Below, piece after piece: positions 13,295 through 32,064 of a stretch of DNA of 64,000 nucleotides. The stretch's first letter is position 1. Every line of letters begins with the position of its first letter. Under the pieces are notes generated by a model. It saw only the letters and a program-made list of their open reading frames with translations. It was not told the origin of the DNA and ran no database searches. A program made the position numbers and the translations under genes. The DNA comes from Acidobacteriota bacterium (GTDB lineage Bacteria; Acidobacteriota; Thermoanaerobaculia; Multivoradales; Multivoraceae). The stretch lies in contig QQVD01000030.1 in the NCBI GenBank assembly GCA_003388555.1, positions 1 to 64,000 of the forward strand. The letters run 5' to 3'.

Positions 13295-14590
13295 TCAGGT
13301 GCCCGAGGCCTCCGCCAGCTCCTCGCGCAGGGTGCGCGCGGCGAGCACGTAGTGCACCGCGCCCCAGACGTTCACCAGCAGGGTGACCAGCAGTGCGTAG
13401 CGCAGCGACTGGTCGCCGAAGCGGTCGCGCAGCAGGTCGCTCAGCGCGCCGACCGCCGGCGGCCCGAAGCCCATGCCGATGAAGTTGAGCACGAAGAGCA
13501 GCACCGCCGCCGCCGCGGCGCGCATCCGCATCGGCACCAGCCCCTGGGTCAAGGCGAAGCTGGGCCCGGTGTAGATCGGCGACAGGAAGGCGGGAATGGT
13601 CCAGAAGGCGAACGACACGTAGGGGCTGGTGGCGAGCAGGGCCGGGAAGGCGAAGGGGATCGAGATCACCAGCGAGATGGCGCAGATCCACACGTACCAG
13701 CGCTGGTCGCGGGCGCCCAGCCGATCGCCGAGGTAGCCGCCGGTGAAGACCCCGGCGGCGCCGATGATGCCTGCGAACAGCGCCAGGAAGGTGCCGACCT
13801 CGCCGCTCGACAGGCCGTAGGTGCGCATGTAGAAGGGCGGCAGGAAGCCGCCGACGCCGTAGGCGACGAAGGCGTGCAGCGCGGCGCCGAACGACAGGTG
13901 GCGGAACGAGCGCCGCGACCACAGCAGCTGGAAGACCTCGACCATGCGGGTGGCGCTGCGCACCTCGGCGGCCGTCTGCACCCGGTGCTCGGAGAGGCCG
14001 CGCGGCGGCTCCTTGAGGAAGATCGCCACCACCCCCGCGAACAGCACGCCCGGCAGGCCGACGACCACGAACGCCATGCGCCAGCCGAAGAACTCGTTGA
14101 TCCAGCCGCCGGCAAGGAAGCCGATCATGATCCCGATCTGGATGCCGATCGAGTAGATCGCCAGCGCCGTGCCGCGCCGCTTGGGCTCGAACAGGTCCGA
14201 GATGATCGAGTGCGCCGGCGGCGAGCAGCCCGCCTCGCCGACACCGACGCCGATGCGTGCCAGCAGCAGGCTGACGAAGCCGGTGGCGGCGCCGCACAGC
14301 GCCGTCATCCCGCTCCACACGAAGATCGCGATCGCGATGATCCCCGAGCGTGACGTGCGGTCGGCCAGCGCCGCGATCGGGATCCCCAGCGTGGCGTAGA
14401 AGAGCGCGAAGGCGAAGCCGGTGAGCAGCCCGAGCTGCCAGTCGTAGAGGCCGAGGTCCTGCTTGATCGACTCCTGCAGGATGCTGAGGATCGAGCGGTC
14501 GATGAAGTTGAAGACGTACGCCACCACCAGCAGCCCCAGCGCGAACCAGCGGTAGCGCGGGGTGAAGAACTCGGCCGGGCGCGTCTGCAT
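13295..14590 (-). CDS. MFS transporter, spinster/sphingosine-like group
   Basis: A 431-residue, 12-helix transporter beginning MQTRPAEFFTPRYRWFALG. VAYVFNFIDRSILSILQESI and PIAALADRTSRSGIIA match the Spns-like bacterial MFS group (NFxDR motif in helix 1, D-R-T loop). The frame is open to 14983, but the extra part is translated repeat sequence. The start is ATG 14588-14590, with GAGGAGG about 7 bases upstream. Substrate unknown. The 5' side carries two copies of a 135-bp repeat. Confidence 0.88.
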   Translation of the reverse strand: MQTRPAEFFTPRYRWFALGLLVVAYVFNFIDRSILSILQESIKQDLGLYDWQLGLLTGFAFALFYATLGIPIAALADRTSRSGIIAIAIFVWSGMTALCGAATGFVSLLLARIGVGVGEAGCSPPAHSIISDLFEPKRRGTALAIYSIGIQIGIMIGFLAGGWINEFFGWRMAFVVVGLPGVLFAGVVAIFLKEPPRGLSEHRVQTAAEVRSATRMVEVFQLLWSRRSFRHLSFGAALHAFVAYGVGGFLPPFYMRTYGLSSGEVGTFLALFAGIIGAAGVFTGGYLGDRLGARDQRWYVWICAISLVISIPFAFPALLATSPYVSFAFWTIPAFLSPIYTGPSFALTQGLVPMRMRAAAAAVLLFVLNFIGMGFGPPAVGALSDLLRDRFGDQSLRYALLVTLLVNVWGAVHYVLAARTLREELAEASGT

Positions 14591-14734
14591 GCGGAGGCCT
14601 CCTCGGCGCGGCCGTGCCTCCGCAGGGCGAAGGGGGCGGGCGGCGGATGTCTCGATCGAAAGGCGACGGGAGAAGTGGGCGCATCCTATGCGCTCCGAAT
14701 CGTCCCGCAGCTCGGCGGCGGTGCGGGAAGAGGA

Positions 14735-14985
14735 CTCGAGCTCGCACCGGCTCCGCGAACCTTCCGCATCCTCCCCCTGCAGGGGGAGGACAGAGGTGGG
14801 GGTCTCCCAGTCAGAGATCTCGTCGCACCACGCGAAGTCCCGCCTCACGCAACGCGTGGATCCGCGCCCTCGAGCTCGCACCGGCACCGAGACGCCTTCC
14901 GCATCCTCCCCCTGCAGGGGGAGGACAGAGGTGGGGGTCTCCCAGTCAGAGATCTCGTCGCACCACGCGAAGTCCCGCCTCACGC
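14735..14985. repeat. 135-bp tandem duplication carrying two palindromic hairpins (family A)
   Basis: Two near-identical copies, offset 135 bp (14761-14850 and 14896-14985), each contain the palindrome CCTCCCCCT-GC-AGGGGGAGG (14769-14790 and 14904-14925), then CAGAGGTGGGGGTCTCCCAG and a shared 50-base tail ending CGCCTCACGC. The flanks CTCGAGCTCGCACCGG are also duplicated. The second copy ends exactly where the hydrophobic leader of the next gene begins. Confidence 0.9.
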
Positions 14986-23459: not shown

Positions 23460-25661
23460 CTACTCGCAAGGCACCTCGAATACCGAGTGCTCGGAGAATC
23501 CATCGATTCTCGCGTCCTCACAGACACTGGTGCCTCCCCTAGCATTGTCGACCGTGAAGCTTCGCACGGCTGTCGCAATGTTCCCCCTCGTGTCCGTCGA
23601 TCGGATTCGCACCAGATGGAAGCCCTCGGAGTACTGTGTTGTGTCGACGACGAAGGAGAAACCAATGAACGGGCAGCGTGGATCCTCGAGGGGGCCATAC
23701 GTGGGTCCGGCGCAGACGTCCTGTCGAGCAACCCAACGCCAGGCGTCCTGAAGCCAGGGACCGCTGTCGATCTGGTACTCGATCGTTGCGACTCCCGACG
23801 CATCGGTGCTCCAGCCCGCGAAGACCTCCAATCCCGAGACCGGTCCGGCGGGGGATGTCTGGTTGAAGTAGTGGTAGGGGATGGCCGAATCGGTATTCGC
23901 CACGGTACCGACGGTGAAGTCCTGGTCGAAGTTCTGCCAGGTCGAGTTCAGTCCCAGGGTGTCGAAAGCCCGGATCGAGAGGTCGTTGAGACCGCTGCCG
24001 TTCGGGCCGACATAGCTGTCGAACCCTGGTTGCGGCTCGATCATTACGCCCACCACTTTGGAGTCACCGATGGTGGTGGATGCGCATGACGCCAACGTGA
24101 TGTGCTGGTGCCCCGTGGCGGCAGCACCCGCCTTGGACACGAAGCCACCCTCCCCCGTGCACTCGAGTCGATCCAGCGGCCACTTGTAGTTATTCTGCCG
24201 CCAAGCGATGCGGCCACGTTGGTTCGAGTTGTTGGAGCCCTGTACGTTGATCCCGCCCTCGATCTCGCGGATTCCGTCGGCGTCCGATGCCTCCAGCCAG
24301 ATGGGATAGTGGCGGAAACCGTCCGCCTTCCAGTGGTCGGAGAAGACCTGGGAGGCCTCGTTGACGGGGGGTGTGTTGGGGAGAACCTGAAAGACCCCAT
24401 CCGAACGACCGGACAGCAGCAGATCGGGCTCGATCGCCCAGATCGTCAGGTCGTGGTGCCCGGCAGAAGGGACGCCGCTCGTATCGAGGACCGCTTCGAA
24501 GCCACTGTTCGGCGGGCAGCCTGGGCAGTTCGGAGGCGTGGGCAGACCCGTAGTCGTGCTGATCGCTCCAACCTCTGAACCATCGAGGTAAAAGCGATGG
24601 TCCTCCAGCCCGGTCGTCGACGCCAGTACGCCTGAGACCAGTGCTCGCCCCAAAGCATCGAACTCGATGTTCGTCAAGCCCGTGTACGGTCCACGGGCCA
24701 GCGAGTCACCGCGGTTGCCGGAGCAGACGAGATAGTAGGTCGTCTGGCCATCGCAGTCGTCACCATGCCGAATTGGCGGTGGCTGCTGCGTGCATTCCTC
24801 CGGCGGCATCGGCTGGCCGTCCGGCCCGACACAGCCAACAATCTCTCCCTCGCCAACGGAGACGCAGGCGACATCCTCGAGCTCACAGAGATTGGGGTAT
24901 TCGATCTCGGGGCCTGGAGAAAGCCCGTCGCCGAGGCCTGTGCCGTCGCCGCCGCCTGGAGGTAGGACCGTTGGGTCGATATTGAACTCGTCTGCGCGAT
25001 CGCATTCTGCCTCTGAAGGAGTGTAGCTATCGATCGGGACGTAGGTATAACCCTTTCCGCCAGCCTTCGCCGGGGGCTCAAAAACCTGTTGTTCGATATC
25101 AAGCACTCCACCACAGTCATGCTCCTCCAAATTTAGGCAGTGCCCGAGCTCGTGTGCCACAACCGCGCTCAAATAAGCTGCATCGCTTCGGCACTCGAAG
25201 ACGACGCCACCTTTCTCCACCGTCCTGTACAGAAACAACCTGCCGATGCTAGGCACAATATCCGCGCAATGGGTTCCCGAAGTATTGATCTCCACAGCCT
25301 GAATATAGATAGCTTCAGGATCAGCGTAGTCACACGGAGTGTCAACTGGCGCGGAACTGAAGCGAGGGAACCTAGGGGATTCCGGTGGAGACGTATTGCA
25401 TCCGCCGAGCATCCACTTAAGGTAAGCTTCCGTGAAAACGTCGCCTCCGCCGGCGAATGACAAGGCGCTGTCACACTCCTTCACTTGGACCGTGGAGATG
25501 TTGCGAGGCGGGCCTTCCGTATGGTCAATCAAACACTCGGATCCAAGCTCGGAGTGCACATCCAGTTCTGCACACAGTTGCACTGCGCGCAATAACACGA
25601 CGAAGACTGCAGCTAGAGTTCCAGGCGTGTGCGCTTCAACCGTCCGCCGTCCGATTATCAC
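23460..25661 (-). CDS. Secreted zinc-metalloprotease-like protein (HExxHxxxxxH)
   Basis: A 733-residue protein with a signal-like segment near residues 13-31 (TPGTLAAVFVVLLRAVQLCA). The zinc site AHELGHCLNLEEH (H170, E171, H174, H181) fits the HExxHxxxxxH pattern of metzincin-like proteases, but the usual Gly is Leu. Many cysteines lie around it. The rest is a beta-rich tail with Ig-like repeats (YPIWLEASDADGIREIEGG and ATIEYQIDSGPWL), as in secreted acidobacterial proteins. It starts at GTG 25659-25661, overlapping the previous gene by 26 bp, and is the last gene of the leftward low-GC island. Substrate unknown. It could also be a non-catalytic adhesin keeping the fold. Confidence 0.72.
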   Translation of the reverse strand: MIIGRRTVEAHTPGTLAAVFVVLLRAVQLCAELDVHSELGSECLIDHTEGPPRNISTVQVKECDSALSFAGGGDVFTEAYLKWMLGGCNTSPPESPRFPRFSSAPVDTPCDYADPEAIYIQAVEINTSGTHCADIVPSIGRLFLYRTVEKGGVVFECRSDAAYLSAVVAHELGHCLNLEEHDCGGVLDIEQQVFEPPAKAGGKGYTYVPIDSYTPSEAECDRADEFNIDPTVLPPGGGDGTGLGDGLSPGPEIEYPNLCELEDVACVSVGEGEIVGCVGPDGQPMPPEECTQQPPPIRHGDDCDGQTTYYLVCSGNRGDSLARGPYTGLTNIEFDALGRALVSGVLASTTGLEDHRFYLDGSEVGAISTTTGLPTPPNCPGCPPNSGFEAVLDTSGVPSAGHHDLTIWAIEPDLLLSGRSDGVFQVLPNTPPVNEASQVFSDHWKADGFRHYPIWLEASDADGIREIEGGINVQGSNNSNQRGRIAWRQNNYKWPLDRLECTGEGGFVSKAGAAATGHQHITLASCASTTIGDSKVVGVMIEPQPGFDSYVGPNGSGLNDLSIRAFDTLGLNSTWQNFDQDFTVGTVANTDSAIPYHYFNQTSPAGPVSGLEVFAGWSTDASGVATIEYQIDSGPWLQDAWRWVARQDVCAGPTYGPLEDPRCPFIGFSFVVDTTQYSEGFHLVRIRSTDTRGNIATAVRSFTVDNARGGTSVCEDARIDGFSEHSVFEVPCE

Positions 25662-26388
25662 GATTTACCATCGCGGACAAGTCAGACACCCTATAGTGGG
25701 CACGGAGGGATTTTTCAAGGGTCGAGGCAGGAAGGGCAACTCGGCCGTCGGATTCGATCCGTAGCACCGAACTCCCGTCGACTAGCTTGAGAAGCGGCAG
25801 ATCAGAATGGACTGGGCCGCCCCCGACGGCAAGCCACAGTCGCTCACCCAACTGAGGGGGAGCGATCCAGTTGCGGTTCCGAGCACATACTCTCCTGCCT
25901 GAGACCACTACAGGGCCAACCGGCATAAAGAACTGCACGCGGGAGCCGGCCTCGTCTCCTCGCTCTACGCCTAGAACCACCGCCTCGACAAGGGTCCCCG
26001 GCGTCCACGCAAAGAAGCCACCAGTTGTCCCACTAACCTCCACCTCGAGAATATGGGCTGAAGAGCGAAGTGTCTCTTCAATCCCGCGACTACCAGACAG
26101 CCAAGTGCTGTCAATGGCGACAGTGTCTACGAGTCTGCAGTCCGAGGCCTGATTCTCTCCGACTCGGAGAAATGCTTGTAGCGTCGTTTCCCAAATCTCA
26201 CCGTAGCCGGGGAGACGGATCTCGTCACCGATCTCGACGAGCTCAGCAGAGAGCTTGTCCTCCGAGAGGAACACGGGCTCGGTCGAGTACTCGGTATAGA
26301 GCGCGTCTGGCCACCACTTGTTCGCGGGCTCCTGGCCCCAGACGACGCTACTGACGAGCAGCAGGCAAGGACAGAAGGCCTTCAGCAC
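25636..26388 (-). CDS. Hypothetical secreted protein of the island family
   Basis: 250 residues with a signal peptide (LKAFCPCLLLVSSVVWGQEP). It contains no domain I can name. The mid-part (GTLVEAVVLGVERG, VVVSGRRVCARNRNW, LGERLWLAVGG) follows the same order of beta-strand motifs as the upstream gene at 27161-27991, so the two look like distant paralogues. The start was set by the ribosome site: AAGGAG at 26395-26400 sits 6 bases before GTG 26386-26388. An in-frame ATG at 26410-26412 has no such site. The stop overlaps the metalloprotease start. Base composition is lower in GC than the rest of the window. Confidence 0.65.
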   Translation of the reverse strand: MLKAFCPCLLLVSSVVWGQEPANKWWPDALYTEYSTEPVFLSEDKLSAELVEIGDEIRLPGYGEIWETTLQAFLRVGENQASDCRLVDTVAIDSTWLSGSRGIEETLRSSAHILEVEVSGTTGGFFAWTPGTLVEAVVLGVERGDEAGSRVQFFMPVGPVVVSGRRVCARNRNWIAPPQLGERLWLAVGGGPVHSDLPLLKLVDGSSVLRIESDGRVALPASTLEKSLRAHYRVSDLSAMVNRDNRTADG

Positions 26389-26494
26389 GCTTGTCTCCTT
26401 TGCTCCTAGCATTCGCACGGTACGGTCTTCCAACCGGCTGGTCTCCCACTCTTGAGAAGCGCACAACCACATTAGTCGGCTGGCGAGCGAAGTG

Positions 26495-27159
26495 TCAACG
26501 TAATTTATTGTGATCGTCTACCCGGACAAGCAGGAGCGGAGGCCGAAACAGATACACACGGCCTCTGGCGAACTCGGTCAACTCCAGTATCAGGTGGATG
26601 TAGAAGGCCCCATTCATCCTCATCCCCCCTTGCGCGTTCGGCGACACGTCCATCGGATGGAGACCGCTCAAGAGCCGCAGTCTGGCGATCGAGCCGTACC
26701 TGCGGCAAGGACCGCACAGCGTCTGCCGAGCAGTGATCGACCGGCATCCTCTGATCCACACCTTCCGCAGCCCCCCTCCCACCGAGGAAGGCAACGCTGA
26801 CTCGCCTGCCGTCCCCCAGCACCTGCAGGGATGCCTCCAGGGTCACGGTCGCGATCTCTCCATCGGAGCAGAGCTCAGCTACTGGACTCCGCCGAGTAGC
26901 GGCTCATCGTGCACCGGGCGCTCGGCGGCGAATCGGGCAGGCAGGCAGTTCCCTCCATCTGGCTCTCGTAGTACCAGAGCTTCTTCACGGCACGGGGGAT
27001 GTGAGTGCCTCCGATCGTCGGAAGGGAGGCGACGTGAGCGGCCGACGCGTAGTCGCGGAGCTCTCCGTCGGCGCGGCGTGGCCAGCCGTTCTGCTCCGCA
27101 TCGTCCTGACCACCGCCGGACATGAGCGAAAGCACCACCAGGATCAGCCAAGAAGACAT
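26495..27159 (-). pseudogene. Decayed secreted-protein gene (frameshifted paralogue)
   Basis: ATG 27157-27159 has a good ribosome site (GGAGGGTGAG) and starts one base after the previous stop. It encodes a signal peptide (MSSWLILVVLSLMSGGG) and about 94 residues ending at 26875. A second frame directly continues with GEIATVTLEASLQVLGDG, which aligns with GEIWETTLQAFLRVGENQ of the intact gene at 25636-26388. A third frame (to 26495) carries further coding-like sequence (CGPCRRYGSIARLRLLSG). This pattern suggests one former gene of about 220 codons broken by at least two indels. The first 94 codons could still be made as a short secreted peptide. Confidence 0.45.
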
Positions 27160-27160
27160 C

Positions 27161-27991
27161 TCACCCTCCGCCTTCTCCAGCGCTCCTGTCGGCAGTGCTG
27201 CTGCTCGGTCTCACGGCCCAAGCCCTCGCCAACTCGCCGATCGCCTCTTCGAGCGCTCGACCAATCAACTCCTGGTCCGGCGAGTACAGACCCGACGGAG
27301 CTCGAACCACGAGTCCCTTCTCGGCAAGAAGAACTGAGGCCGAAGAGGCGCTTCCGACCAGGATTCCCTCGCCCCGGGTATGAATCGACTGCTTCCGATT
27401 GGGCACTGCAAAAGCAATTTCATCGCCTACCGCGGGGCGTCGATCCCGACCGATGCAGTATCTGGTTCCATCAAGGGTCACGTCCCCTTCCGTGAGCAGT
27501 AGCCAAAACGGCAACCCAGAGTCCTCGTCAGCCGGTCGCCGTTTCAACGCGATCCGCAGAGCAGTTGCCGGATGCCCGACCGAGACGCCCAGCACGACCT
27601 TCTCGATCACACCGTCGAAGACTTGCGCGCCCTGCGCCAGGTCGTACCGTTGCTCGTCCTTTGGATTGCTGTGTGTCGTCGTGCTTCCTGGACCAAGGCA
27701 CTCTCCGTCTCGAGACGCCGTCTCCTCGAGCATCCGGTGGTATTCGTGTCCCTCGACTCTTCGCAACTCTCCAAGCGCGGTGAATGCAGGATACGAGTGC
27801 TCGCCTGCGAAGCGTCGCTCCACGCGCAAAACGAGATGGACGAGCTCATCACGTTCGTTCAGTCGCGCCTCGACGACTTCCGGGCCCGCGAGGGCCTGCT
27901 GAGCCAGAGCCACGCTGGCCACCAGCAGGGCCATCGAGAACACCAGCAACGCTCGAGAGCCCTGGAAGTTGGCCGTCGACTTGGCGCTCAT
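27161..27991 (-). CDS. Hypothetical secreted protein of the island family
   Basis: 276 residues with a signal peptide (ALLVFSMALLVASVALAQQ). No known family is recognised. It shows FDGVIEKVVLGVSVG, GDVTLDGTRYCIGRD and VGDEIAFAVPN, a strand order shared with the product of 25636-26388. The start is ATG 27989-27991: CCTCCCC on the plus strand (27999-28005) gives a GGGGAGG ribosome site 7 bases upstream. The upstream in-frame codon at 28027 is less likely. Its TGA lies one base before the start of the next gene, implying coupled translation. Confidence 0.65.
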   Translation of the reverse strand: MSAKSTANFQGSRALLVFSMALLVASVALAQQALAGPEVVEARLNERDELVHLVLRVERRFAGEHSYPAFTALGELRRVEGHEYHRMLEETASRDGECLGPGSTTTHSNPKDEQRYDLAQGAQVFDGVIEKVVLGVSVGHPATALRIALKRRPADEDSGLPFWLLLTEGDVTLDGTRYCIGRDRRPAVGDEIAFAVPNRKQSIHTRGEGILVGSASSASVLLAEKGLVVRAPSGLYSPDQELIGRALEEAIGELARAWAVRPSSSTADRSAGEGGG

Positions 27992-28108
27992 CACCGGTCC
28001 TCCCCGGCTGGCACCAGATCCCTCCAACTCGTCAACGCCATCTCCCTCGTTTCGCGCATCCAGGACGGTAGGAAATGAAGGTCAGCGAAAGGCCACAATA
28101 GACCAGCG

Positions 28109-28195
28109 TCACGCGATCCCCACCAGGACCAGGAGCAGCACCGCCGTCGGCCTACGTCGCCGGGCCGGCCGCGGACGCGCTACGGCCTCGTCCAT
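28109..28195 (-). CDS. Candidate 28-residue membrane microprotein
   Basis: ATG 28193-28195 is preceded directly by GGAGGAGGG, one of the strongest ribosome sites in the region. The peptide MDEAVARPRPARRRR, then PTAVLLLVLVGIA, is a basic segment followed by a hydrophobic helix, then TGA at 28109. It is 117 bp upstream of, and co-directional with, the first secreted-protein gene of the island. It could be a small membrane protein, a leader peptide, or chance. Confidence 0.3.
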   Translation of the reverse strand: MDEAVARPRPARRRRPTAVLLLVLVGIA

Positions 28196-28290: not shown

Positions 28291-28320
28291 GCGTGGATCC
28301 TGAATCGAGTTCAGGATGAC
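28291..28320. repeat. Family-B-like hairpin repeat (variant stem)
   Basis: GCGTGG-ATCCTGAA-TCGAG-TTCAGGAT-GAC: an 8-bp stem with loop TCGAG. It carries the same outer flanks (GTGGATC and GATGAC) as the copies at 59417 and 62156, with a different stem sequence. Confidence 0.6.
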
Positions 28321-28502: not shown

Positions 28503-28790
28503 TCAGCTCTCGTCCGGGTCGTCGCCCTCGCGACTGCTCTCGACGGCACCCGAGGCGCTCCGCTGCCGACGCTGATACGCCTCGAAGTTGGCGCGATCCC
28601 ATGCGTCGCTGAGCTGCTGTGCCTCCTCGATCGAGCGGTGCTTGTGGACGCCGGGTGGAAAGCGAGGTCTCAGGGTCCGCTGCACCATCTCCCAGGTCTC
28701 ACGCAGCGCTCGAAGCAGCTCGGGACTCCCCTTGTCGAACCACAAGGCGTCGGGCATCTCCGTGACGTCGCGATACTTGCGGACCGGCAT
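28503..28790 (-). CDS. Hypothetical protein coupled to the interrupted nucleotidyltransferase
   Basis: A 95-residue, charged, helix-rich protein (MPVRKYRDVTEMPDALWFD; HKHRSIEEAQQLSDAWDRAN) with no named domain. Its ATG overlaps the TGA of the nucleotidyltransferase 3' part by one base (TGATG at 28788-28792), the usual arrangement of a two-gene unit. A partner or antitoxin-like role beside a minimal nucleotidyltransferase is possible from context only. Because the upstream gene is split by an insertion, expression may now depend on a promoter in or near the element. Confidence 0.7.
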   Translation of the reverse strand: MPVRKYRDVTEMPDALWFDKGSPELLRALRETWEMVQRTLRPRFPPGVHKHRSIEEAQQLSDAWDRANFEAYQRRQRSASGAVESSREGDDPDES

Positions 28791-29535
28791 CAGTCGTCCT
28801 CGAAGCCGAAGAACTCGCGCAGGCGCTCGGCATCGGCGCGGTCCTTGAGCCGCACAGTGTCCTTCTTCATCCTGTACAGCGTCTCGGCGCTCACCACGGA
28901 GAGCTCAGGGGCTTGCTGAAGAAGTCCTGCGGAGCCTCGCGCGGGGATCTGCGCCGTCTGGTCGTGGCGCGGCCGACGAACTCGATGCGGTGCCACGTGG
29001 AGGAGGTCCAACGCGGCCAGGCGGCGCAAACCCCCGCGCCCTTTGGGTTTCGGCGGCGTTGGCCCATCTCCTGCGTTGCGCTCACTCTACAATGGCACCG
29101 CATTGCCATCGCTCGCACGCCACAGGATCTGAGGCCAACGGCGCTCGAAACGAGGCCCACAGGACTTCTTCAGCAAGCCCCTAGCCCATCGAAGTCGACC
29201 CGCTGCGCTTCGAGGTCCTCGAAGGTGAAGGCGTCACCGAGGCGCGTGAGGATGTCGACGTGGAAGCCCTCGTCCGGCGGCACGTACTGGATGGCCGGGT
29301 ACTCCCCGAGCAGGTCCTCGGCGGTGATCTCCTCGATCTGGGGATCGCCAAAGACCGAGTGCAGCGCCGTCCTCAGCCGCTCGATGTTCTCTGCCCTGGG
29401 AGCCACGAAGAGATCGAGGTCCACGGTGGCGCGTGGCAGGCCATGGAGGCCGAGGCCGACGGCACCGAACACGACGTACTCGACGTCGTGCTCCTCGAGG
29501 GCTGCGAGCACCTGGCGGGTGCGAAGAAGATCCAC
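28790..29535 (-). pseudogene. Nucleotidyltransferase (AbiEii/MNT-like) interrupted by a 276-bp element
   Basis: The 5' part (29535 to 29183) encodes VEYVVFGAVGLGLHGLPRAT and VDLDLFVAPRAENIERL, with the G(A/G)x...DxD pattern of minimal nucleotidyltransferases, up to EAQRVDFDGL. The 3' part (28906 to 28790) continues with ELSVVSAETLYRMKKDT, then VRLKDRADAERLREFFG, the usual C-terminal signature of this family. Joining them across the element restores one frame of about 155 residues. As it stands, the N-terminal part ends in element sequence after GLGAC. The downstream 95-residue gene is translationally coupled. Natural relatives act in toxin-antitoxin pairs or tRNA/nucleotide transfer; the exact role here is unknown. 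Confidence 0.8.
28907..29182. mobile_element. MITE-like element, 276 bp, perfect 23-bp terminal inverted repeats
   Basis: The left end AGGGGCTTGCTGAAGAAG-TCCTG (28907-28929) is matched exactly, in inverse, by 29160-29182. The interior (about 230 bp) encodes no transposase I can recognise. The element sits inside the nucleotidyltransferase gene. No clean target duplication is seen; flanks are GAGCTC (left) and AGCCCA (right), and CTCAG/CTAG is at best imperfect. It is most likely a deletion derivative of an insertion sequence mobilised in trans. Confidence 0.88.
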
Positions 29536-29607: not shown

Positions 29608-32064
29608 CTACTCCGCCCGCAGCACCTGCACCGGGTCGACGCGCAGCGCCCGCACCGTCGGCACCGCCGCGGCCGCGAGGGCGGCGGCGAGCAGCAACGC
29701 CACGGTGACGCCGTAGCTCAGCGGGTCGAGCGTCTCGACCCCGAACAGCAAGCCCTCGAGCAGCCGGCCGCTGGCCAGCGCACCCACGAGGCCGAGGGCG
29801 AGGCCGGCGAGCACCGGGCGCAGGGCTCTGGTGAGCTGCGATTCGGCGACCCGGCGCGGCGAGGCGCCGACGGCGATGCGCACCCCGACCTCGCGCAGCC
29901 GGCGCAGCAGCTGGTAGGTGAGCACAGCGTAGAGGCCGAGGGCGGCGAGCAGCAGCGCCAGCACCGCGAAGAGGCCGATCATCGTCGCACCGGTGCGGTA
30001 GCGGCCGAGCTCGCGGTCGAGGATGCTCGCCAGGCTCGCCGACGGCGGCACCGCGACGGCGGGATCGATGCCGGCGATGGCGGCTTCGGCGAGACGCTGC
30101 ACCGCCGCGTCGCCGAGGCGCGACGCGATGACGAAGGCGTACGACGACGGCTCGAGCTGCGCCGCCGGTACGAAGACGTGCGGCTTCGGGTCCTCGCCGA
30201 GGTCCTGGTAGGTGGCGGTCTCGACGACGCCGACGACCTCGATCGGCTCGTCCTGACGGATCGTCTTGCCGACCGCGTCGTCACCGCGCCAGTAGCGCTC
30301 GGCGAAGGCACGGTTGACGATGGCGACGCGCGGCGCTCCGGTGGCGTCGCTCCAGGTGAAGTCGCGCCCGGCGACCAGCGGCGTGCCGAGGGCTTCGAAG
30401 TACCCCGGAGCCACGGCGTTGAACAGCTCGCTGGGCTCTTCCCCTTCGGCCACCTCGAGGCCCTCGGGCACCATGCTGCTGGTCCATCTGGCACGGAACG
30501 GCACCATGCGGGTCAGGCTGACCTGCTCGAAGCCGGGCGTCGCCGCCAGCGCCTCGAGGCTCTGGCGTGCGAACTGCGCCGCCGCCTCGCCCTCGTAGCC
30601 GTGGTTGCGCGGCGCGACGCTGACGAAGTGCAGGCCGGTGGTCTCGAAACCGAGGTCGAGACCGCGCGCCTCGCGCAGGCTGCGCGTGGTCAGCGCGCCG
30701 CCCACCACCAGCAGCGTCGCCAGCGCCACCTGCAGGGCCACCAGGGCGCCCTGGCGCCAGCCGCCGGTCGCCTCGTCGCCACGCGCCAGCGAGCTGAGCT
30801 GCAGGCGGCGCAGCGTCGAACGGGCCGCGAGCCACCCGACCACCAGCGCGGTGGCCGTGCCGAGCAGCGCCGAGAAGCCGAGCACCCCGAGGTCGGGGCG
30901 CAGGCCGAGATCGAAGGTGTACGGGAACACAGCGGCGATGGCGCGGGTGGCGCCCTGCGCCAGTGCGAAGCCGCCGAGCGCGCCGAGCAGGCCGACCACC
31001 ACGCTCTCGATCGCGAGAGCGCGCACCAGCCGGCCTCGGGCGGCGCCGAGCGCCAGGCGCACCCGCAGCTCGCGGCTGCGATCGGCGGCGCGGGCGCCGA
31101 GCAGGATTGCCAGGTCGAGCAGCGCGATGAGCAGCACCGCGACGACGCCGAGCGCCAGCAGGCGGGTGATCGAGACCAGCTCGGAGCGCCGGTTCGGATC
31201 GTGGCGCGCCCCGGCCGAGACGGTGGCGCCCCAACCCTCGTTCCACTCCGGGAACTCCTGCTCGAGATGCGCCGCCATGCGGCTGACGTCGGCCTGGGCG
31301 CCCTCGAGAGTGGCGCCCTCGGCGAGGCGGCCGACGACGTTGAGCCAGGTCCAGGTGTTGCCCGGGATGCGGCGCAGCGCCAGCTCGCCGAACTGCGGGT
31401 TGAGCAGCGCGTGGGTGGTGATCGGCACCCACAGGGCGGGCGTCGCCAGCAGCGGGTTGGTGCCGTGGAAACCCGCCGGCACGACGCCGACGACGGTGAA
31501 GGGGTGGCCGTTGAGGCGCACCGCACGTCCCACCCCCGCCTCGGCGTCGCCGAACAGCTCCTCGGCGCGGCGCTCGCCGAGCAGCGCCACCCGCGCCGGA
31601 TCCTCCACCCGCTCCTCGTCGGCGGTGAACCAGCGTCCGGCAGACGGCGACGTGCCCAGGGTGTCGAAGTAGTTGAAGCTGATGTAACGCGCCGAGCGCG
31701 TCGCGCCTTCGGAACCCGTCGGTCCCGCGCCGTCGCCGGCGGCCTCGAAGCGCACAGAGTCGAGGCGCTCGTCGAACGCCATCAGCGACGCGAACGCCTG
31801 GCCGTGCTCGCGGTAGTGCTGGAAGTCGGGATAGGCGAGCGAGCCGAAGATGACCTCGTCGCCCTCCGTGCGGGCGACCTGCACCAGCTCCGAGGGGTTC
31901 TCGACGTGTGCCGGCGCGGCGAAGAAGAGCCGGTCGGCGAGGGTGTAGATCGTCGCGTTGGCGCCGATCGCGAGGGCGAAGATCGCCACCGCGACGACGG
32001 TGAAGCGGCGGCTGCGCAGCAGCGAGCGCAGCGCGGTGCGCAGATCGAACCAGAGTCTGTCCAT
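29608..32064 (-). CDS. ABC transporter permease, ADOP class (MacB-like periplasmic core plus two FtsX domains)
   Basis: An 818-residue protein. It starts MDRLWFDLRTALRSLLRSRR, then FTVVAVAIFALAIGANATIY, the conserved first-helix signature of acidobacterial duplicated orphan permeases. A MacB-like periplasmic core (about residues 50-235) is followed by three helices of the first FtsX domain (LLALGVVAVLLIALLDLAIL; RVRLALGAARGRLVRALAIE), then a second core and a second FtsX (VGVRIAVGASPRRVAESQL). It ends VRALRVDPVQVLRAE. Such proteins have no ATPase partner next to them here and their substrates are unknown; lipoprotein or peptide export and envelope stress are suggested for relatives. Confidence 0.9.
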   Translation of the reverse strand: MDRLWFDLRTALRSLLRSRRFTVVAVAIFALAIGANATIYTLADRLFFAAPAHVENPSELVQVARTEGDEVIFGSLAYPDFQHYREHGQAFASLMAFDERLDSVRFEAAGDGAGPTGSEGATRSARYISFNYFDTLGTSPSAGRWFTADEERVEDPARVALLGERRAEELFGDAEAGVGRAVRLNGHPFTVVGVVPAGFHGTNPLLATPALWVPITTHALLNPQFGELALRRIPGNTWTWLNVVGRLAEGATLEGAQADVSRMAAHLEQEFPEWNEGWGATVSAGARHDPNRRSELVSITRLLALGVVAVLLIALLDLAILLGARAADRSRELRVRLALGAARGRLVRALAIESVVVGLLGALGGFALAQGATRAIAAVFPYTFDLGLRPDLGVLGFSALLGTATALVVGWLAARSTLRRLQLSSLARGDEATGGWRQGALVALQVALATLLVVGGALTTRSLREARGLDLGFETTGLHFVSVAPRNHGYEGEAAAQFARQSLEALAATPGFEQVSLTRMVPFRARWTSSMVPEGLEVAEGEEPSELFNAVAPGYFEALGTPLVAGRDFTWSDATGAPRVAIVNRAFAERYWRGDDAVGKTIRQDEPIEVVGVVETATYQDLGEDPKPHVFVPAAQLEPSSYAFVIASRLGDAAVQRLAEAAIAGIDPAVAVPPSASLASILDRELGRYRTGATMIGLFAVLALLLAALGLYAVLTYQLLRRLREVGVRIAVGASPRRVAESQLTRALRPVLAGLALGLVGALASGRLLEGLLFGVETLDPLSYGVTVALLLAAALAAAAVPTVRALRVDPVQVLRAE

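What the first reader, a model, noticed from the sequence alone, without database searches (positions are those of the whole stretch)
23460..28195. Low-GC island of co-transcribed secreted proteins with an internal family and a decaying member
All genes are leftward, most overlap or are 1 bp apart, all have signal peptides, and base composition drops visibly compared with both sides. At least three belong to one unnamed, beta-rich family; one is frameshifted. A secreted HExxH protease closes the run. This could be a horizontally acquired surface or antagonism module.
Basis: partly seen in the sequence, partly recalled or inferred. Interest (0 to 1): 0.55.

Follow-up and report, generated by a model that had tools for sequence, protein, structure and literature searches.

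The report
Secreted protease with unnamed partner gene
The stretch belongs to a recurring pair of secreted proteins, a matrix-metalloprotease-like enzyme and an unnamed partner encoded just before it, which probably holds the protease in check.

Summary
The low-GC island is real: GC3 of genes A, C and D is 0.69, 0.65 and 0.71, against a mean of 0.89 in 35 other frames of the window. A and C belong to one unnamed family ('X'). Fragment B does not, and nothing shows it to be a decayed member.

In relatives, X is often followed on the same strand by a karilysin/matrixin-like metzincin gene: 60 of 100 X genes within 3 kb, against 0 upstream and 0 on the opposite strand. In 18 of 43 nearest pairs start and stop codons overlap. 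Eleven frames carry the X core fused in front of a matrixin-like domain. X and protease distances correlate (r = 0.71 over 43 of 52 pairs). About a third of X genes stand alone.

X genes are GC3-poor in 46 of 48 other neighbourhoods, so low GC does not by itself show transfer.

Best reading: X is the protease's dedicated partner, most likely an inhibitor or detached pro-domain, working like the potempin-KLIKK pairs of Tannerella. Inhibition and fold are unproven; the one structure run failed. The window's own protease keeps HExxH but lacks the Met-turn methionine and may be weakened.

The parts
27161..27991 (-). Gene A, family X member (276 aa), tandem extra copy upstream
   Evidence: Translation; family profile E 3.9e-38 (a row of the profile); GC3 0.69
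26875..27159 (-). Fragment B, 94-codon frame with hydrophobic start, unassigned; not shown to be a family X member
   Evidence: Translation; no profile match, no Pfam or NCBIfam match
25636..26388 (-). Gene C, family X member directly before the protease; GTG start at 26388 behind AAGGAG is likelier than the ATG at 26412
   Evidence: Sequence, translation; family profile E 3.7e-59 (a row of the profile); GC3 0.65
23460..25661 (-). Gene D, secreted metzincin-like protein (733 aa) with Ig-like C-terminal region
   Evidence: Translation; protease profile E 6e-4; part similar to the X-linked protease of G057, 39% over 80 residues, E 3e-8
25140..25154 (-). HELGH zinc-binding motif of gene D; the residues after it read CLNLEEHD
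   Evidence: Read; in 12 relatives H, E, H and the Met-turn M are invariant, in D the M is absent

Best explanation
Genes C and D are one copy, and gene A a tandem extra partner, of a two-gene secreted system: family X followed by a matrixin-like metzincin. Shown: in relatives X and protease stand in the fixed order X then protease, often with overlapping start and stop codons; they diverge in step; and the X core also occurs as the N-terminal domain of single-chain proteases. Inferred: X is exported along with the protease, binds its catalytic domain and keeps it inactive in the cell envelope, either as an inhibitor or as a detached pro-domain, until the protease has left the cell or X is removed. 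Extra and orphan X copies would widen protection. In this window the protease lacks the Met-turn methionine, so it may be weak, or serve mainly as a binding protein.
For: 60 of 100 X genes have a protease-profile hit downstream on the same strand within 3 kb, 0 upstream and 0 on the opposite strand (less DNA was at hand upstream, 149 kb against 239 kb). In the first 21 neighbourhoods, chosen by X alone, 12 have an HExxH gene directly downstream. 35 of 47 protease hits (E<=1e-10) have X upstream. Start codon overlaps stop codon in 18 of 43 nearest pairs. Eleven frames fuse the X core in front of a matrixin-like domain, in the order of the gene pair; hhalign probability 97.9, E 4e-13, 6e-13 with 80 X rows. 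Distances correlate, r = 0.71; partners shuffled only within genomes reach that 2 times in 2000. N-terminal hydrophobic segment in 80 of 100 X and 38 of 52 proteases, against 32 of 187 control frames. Protease profile matches solved karilysin, E 8.6e-8, the protease of one potempin pair.
Against: No inhibition, binding or structure is shown. 35 of 100 X genes have no protease nearby, and 12 of 47 protease hits have no X upstream. Coupled divergence also follows from linked inheritance alone. No sequence match of X to any solved inhibitor. The protease profile was built from 12 genes chosen for lying beside X. The window's protease has a changed active-site region, and the window pair itself was too divergent to enter the correlation.
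Confidence: 0.5

Rival explanations
1. X helps the protease to fold, travel or be anchored (chaperone, secretion or surface-docking partner) and does not inhibit it.
For: The same gene order, fusion and coupled divergence would be expected. In the fusions the domain stays attached, as a docking or folding domain could.
Against: Orphan and tandem X copies are less expected of a one-to-one chaperone. Known neighbours of secreted metalloproteases that I read about are inhibitors.
Confidence: 0.27
2. X has its own surface role (adhesin or ligand-binding domain); protease and X are used together at the cell surface without a direct contact.
For: 35 of 100 X genes stand alone; one member carries a TonB C-terminal domain, so X can work in other settings.
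Against: Fusion in front of the catalytic domain in 11 frames and partner-specific correlation within genomes.
Confidence: 0.15
3. One reading: a horizontally acquired, AT-richer island with surface or antagonism genes.
For: Codon use far outside that of 20 window genes. With single sequences, A and C find nothing beyond E about 0.004 in the 23 other genomes of the same family.
Against: X is GC3-poor in 46 of 48 other neighbourhoods, tracking host GC3; the family is concentrated in one class; no tRNA in the window. No dedicated search for transposases or integrases was made.
Confidence: 0.08

Closest known systems
Potempins and KLIKK proteases of Tannerella forsythia
   Same: Inhibitor gene lies directly before its secreted protease gene (PMC7296668, passages read); one of those proteases, karilysin, is the best solved match of the protease profile. 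That some potempins are OB-fold barrels is recalled; the paper was not held.
   Different: X is about 240-420 residues with a two-cysteine core; potempins are small lipoproteins. No sequence match of the X profiles to any solved chain of that name. Different phylum. Inhibition not shown for X.
AprI/Inh inhibitors of serralysins (Pseudomonas, Serratia)
   Same: Exported inhibitor encoded close to a secreted M10-type metalloprotease (PMC4070987, passages read).
   Different: No match of X to this family in Pfam; protease of another subgroup; the fixed order with overlapping codons was tested only for X.
TIMPs (tissue inhibitors of metalloproteases)
   Same: Possible shared logic: the TIMP N-domain is an OB-fold (PMC9409782, passage read). 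The only weak solved matches of the X profiles include one chain, MP81, at E 0.06 and 0.26; that it is an OB-fold is recalled.
   Different: No TIMP match in Pfam for any of 28 or 80 rows; the fold of X is not established.
Matrixin-like proteases with an unnamed N-terminal domain (fusions found here)
   Same: Their N-terminal domain is homologous to the X core.
   Different: One chain instead of two genes; this domain lacks the conserved cysteine pair of X (read).

Membership tests
Family X (defined here) | Match to the 28-row profile with the near-invariant cysteine pair | tested here: met
   A and C match (both are rows of the profile); near-invariant columns C101, G139, C186
Family X (defined here) | Same test for fragment B | tested here: not met
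   No frame matches
Metzincin / matrixin (M10) protease, gene D | HExxH motif | tested here: met
   HELGH at 25140-25154
Metzincin / matrixin (M10) protease, gene D | Glycine and third ligand in HExxHxxGxx[HD], and Met-turn | tested here: not met
   N for G, histidine one place late, no Met-turn M in D, read; M invariant in 12 relatives
Metzincin / matrixin (M10) protease, gene D | Pfam match above the curated cut-off | tested here: not met
   None for D; for its relatives the first row scored 19.7 bits against a cut-off of 24
Potempin | Gene directly upstream of its metalloprotease | tested here: met
   C overlaps D; 60 of 100 X genes have a protease downstream within 3 kb
Potempin | Small lipoprotein | tested here: not met
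   X is about 240-420 residues; 'small lipoproteins' from PMC7296668; a lipobox was not tested by program
Potempin | Inhibits the neighbouring protease | not testable with these tools
   Needs an assay
OB-fold / TIMP-like inhibitor | Five-stranded OB barrel | tested here: inconclusive
   Weak profile match to one solved chain; structure run failed, pLDDT 31.5
Horizontally acquired island | Low GC peculiar to this genome | tested here: not met
   X is GC3-poor in 46 of 48 other neighbourhoods
Horizontally acquired island | Mobility genes or tRNA at the border | tested here: inconclusive
   No tRNA in the window; mobility genes not searched for specifically

The most novel reading that the evidence does not exclude
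One unnamed extracellular domain of these bacteria exists in four states: fused in front of matrixin-like proteases, as a separate gene before them, in tandem arrays, and as orphans. It would be a metzincin pro-domain that broke free and became a family of cognate inhibitors, possibly OB-fold and TIMP- or potempin-like, used as self-protection or immunity against proteases.
Probability: 0.3. Interest if true: 0.7.

Novelty: new variant of a known kind. Interest (0 to 1): 0.5.

Why it matters
A partner family without a Pfam or NCBIfam name, found fused to, beside and apart from matrixin-like proteases, gives a ready set of candidates for bacterial metalloprotease inhibitors and a case in which a protease's own domain may have become a separate regulator. 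If the inhibitor reading holds, it would give a function to secreted 'hypothetical' genes that precede such proteases in this class, and show how bacteria with many secreted proteases protect themselves.

Tried and rejected
Rejected: B as a third, frameshifted member; recent transfer as the reason for low GC; plasmids as carriers, no hit with two queries. In viral contigs three queries found no X, and the four loci found with the protease profile held no X. The palindrome near 28300 as a dispersed repeat: one copy in the genome.

Led nowhere: structure of C from a two-row alignment (pLDDT 31.5). Papers: no hit for metalloprotease + Acidobacteria + matrixin.

Limits of the counts. Its figure for proteases at E 1e-4 (54 of 88) is therefore biased and not used; 35 of 47 (E 1e-10) and 48 of 70 (E 1e-6) are not affected. 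One search also gave 54 of 103 X hits with a protease downstream, 1 upstream and 0 on the opposite strand; one row I did not type (G010:C116, E 1.7e-5) would be a further upstream case. The protease profile was built from 12 genes chosen for lying beside X; 28 pair regions outside these seeds were listed. One search printed 63 of 100 with a protease within 2.5 kb by profile or motif; one (L190) is a chance motif, by profile only and 3 kb, gives 60. In one search the start taken is the first possible start codon in range, so the other 25 offsets are uncertain. One search dropped 9 of 52 pairs for few aligned columns, the window's among them. An earlier GC3 count (16 of 16) used 15 of the other neighbourhoods and the window; one search repeats it with every locus that had at least two flank frames (49 used, 37 left out), and two go against the rule (L191, L203). 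Flank frames were picked by a score that favours high GC3, and some loci come from the same genome. The fusions come from 13 regions picked because an X hit lay in a long frame; 10 held one or two fusions.

Full report
Observation. The window lies on contig C13 of a 6.8 Mb genome in 74 contigs. An ADOP-family permease lies to the right (29608-32064); that ADOP stands for 'acidobacterial duplicated orphan permease' is recalled, so I take the host to be an acidobacterium or near relative, without proof. Between 23460 and 27991 lie four leftward frames: A (27161-27991), fragment B (26875-27159), C (25636-26388 or 26412) and D (23460-25661). GC drops to 0.57-0.66. GC3 of A, C and D lies 3.4 to 4.4 sd below 35 reference frames, and their codon use is outside the range of 20 reference genes. 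A, C and D have hydrophobic starts.

What A and C are. Neither has a Pfam or NCBIfam match above cut-off. A paralogue on contig C39 of the same genome opened the family. A three-row profile found 25 places in 17 of 72 genomes of the order. A 28-row profile found X in 45 of 148 genomes of the class and in 26 of 396 sampled from the phylum (where only six candidates per genome were scored). Members are mostly 240-420 aa, with two nearly invariant cysteines and a core of about 110 residues shared with the fusions below. A and C fall in this family; B does not.

The neighbour. In 21 neighbourhoods chosen by X alone, 12 have an HExxH gene directly downstream. A profile of these 12 has H, E, H and M invariant and matches solved karilysin (8.6e-8) and fibroblast collagenase (2.2e-7); its first row stays below Pfam's M10 cut-off. 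In all fetched loci, 60 of 100 distinct X genes have a protease-profile hit within 3 kb downstream on the same strand, 0 upstream and 0 on the opposite strand (149 kb of upstream against 239 kb of downstream DNA was at hand). Conversely 35 of 47 protease hits (E<=1e-10) have X upstream. In 18 of 43 nearest pairs the start codon overlaps the stop codon by the pattern xTGA. Several loci have two or three X before one protease, as the window has two (L051, L053, L060). In one search, 35 X genes have no such neighbour.

Fusions and coupled change. Eleven frames hold the X core in front of a matrixin-like domain in one chain, in the order of the gene pair. Profile comparison of X with this fused domain gives probability 97.9 and E 4e-13, and 6e-13 with 80 X rows; the fused rows had been found with the X profile, so the two are not independent. 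In the three fused proteins scanned the domain has no Pfam or NCBIfam name. Distances among X and among partner proteases correlate at r = 0.71 over 43 pairs; shuffling partners only within genomes gives a mean of 0.44 and reaches the observed value 2 times in 2000. This shows inheritance as matched pairs; it does not by itself show binding.

Composition. In 46 of 48 other neighbourhoods, most of them with orphan X, X (and its protease where present) lies below its own flanks in GC3; with the window the mean gap is 0.11 and module and flank GC3 correlate (r = 0.56). Weaker codon selection or fast evolution of this family explains this better than one recent transfer; that step is inference.

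Gene D. D keeps HELGH and has a region similar to the X-linked protease of G057 (39% over 80 residues, E 3e-8). The glycine expected after HELGHxx is asparagine, the third histidine comes one place late, and the Met-turn methionine, invariant in 12 relatives, is absent (read). It may be a weakened or non-enzymatic member.

Mechanism. Fixed order, codon overlap, fusion in front of the catalytic domain (where metzincin pro-domains sit; recalled), likely secretion of both, and coupled divergence make X a dedicated partner of the protease. Known parallels are inhibitors encoded beside secreted metalloproteases: potempins directly before KLIKK proteases (PMC7296668, passages read) and AprI near the apr operon (PMC4070987, passages read). 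I therefore put inhibitor or detached pro-domain first (0.5), folding or docking partner second (0.27). An OB-fold is only hinted at, and the one structure run failed.

Novelty. I found no paper on this pair in the searches, which cover only the open library held; of their listings I opened three papers, by passages. The kind of system is known; the family, its four states and its spread look new.

Noticed in passing
29173-29535 (-) and 28506-28790 (-): A frame matching the AbiEii nucleotidyltransferase toxin family above Pfam's cut-off (26.5 bits against 22.5), with an unassigned 95-codon frame on the same strand about 380 bases downstream; a possible remnant of a toxin-antitoxin pair.
   Followed up: no
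28295-28320: A perfect palindrome (TCCTGAACTCGATTCAGGA) between the AbiEii-like frame and gene A; one copy in the whole genome with up to two mismatches.
   Followed up: yes
about 13298-14983 (-): The frame called there begins with a stretch that occurs twice (RRDFAWCDEISDWE), so a short DNA repeat lies near its start.
   Followed up: no
L059:7052-8272 (-) (G018): An X-family protein whose C-terminal part matches TonB_C (the only one of 28 members, E 1e-11).
   Followed up: no
L172:1147-1620 and L196:1744-2217 (both G021): Two nearly identical X cores in one genome, one beside a protease gene and one without, which looks like a recent copy that became an orphan.
   Followed up: partly
L043, L044, L048, L050, L051 protease genes: Several X-linked proteases share a C-terminal part of the type SPILLDLDxxGF...ELFG, rich in aspartate and glycine, perhaps calcium-binding; not identified.
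   Followed up: no
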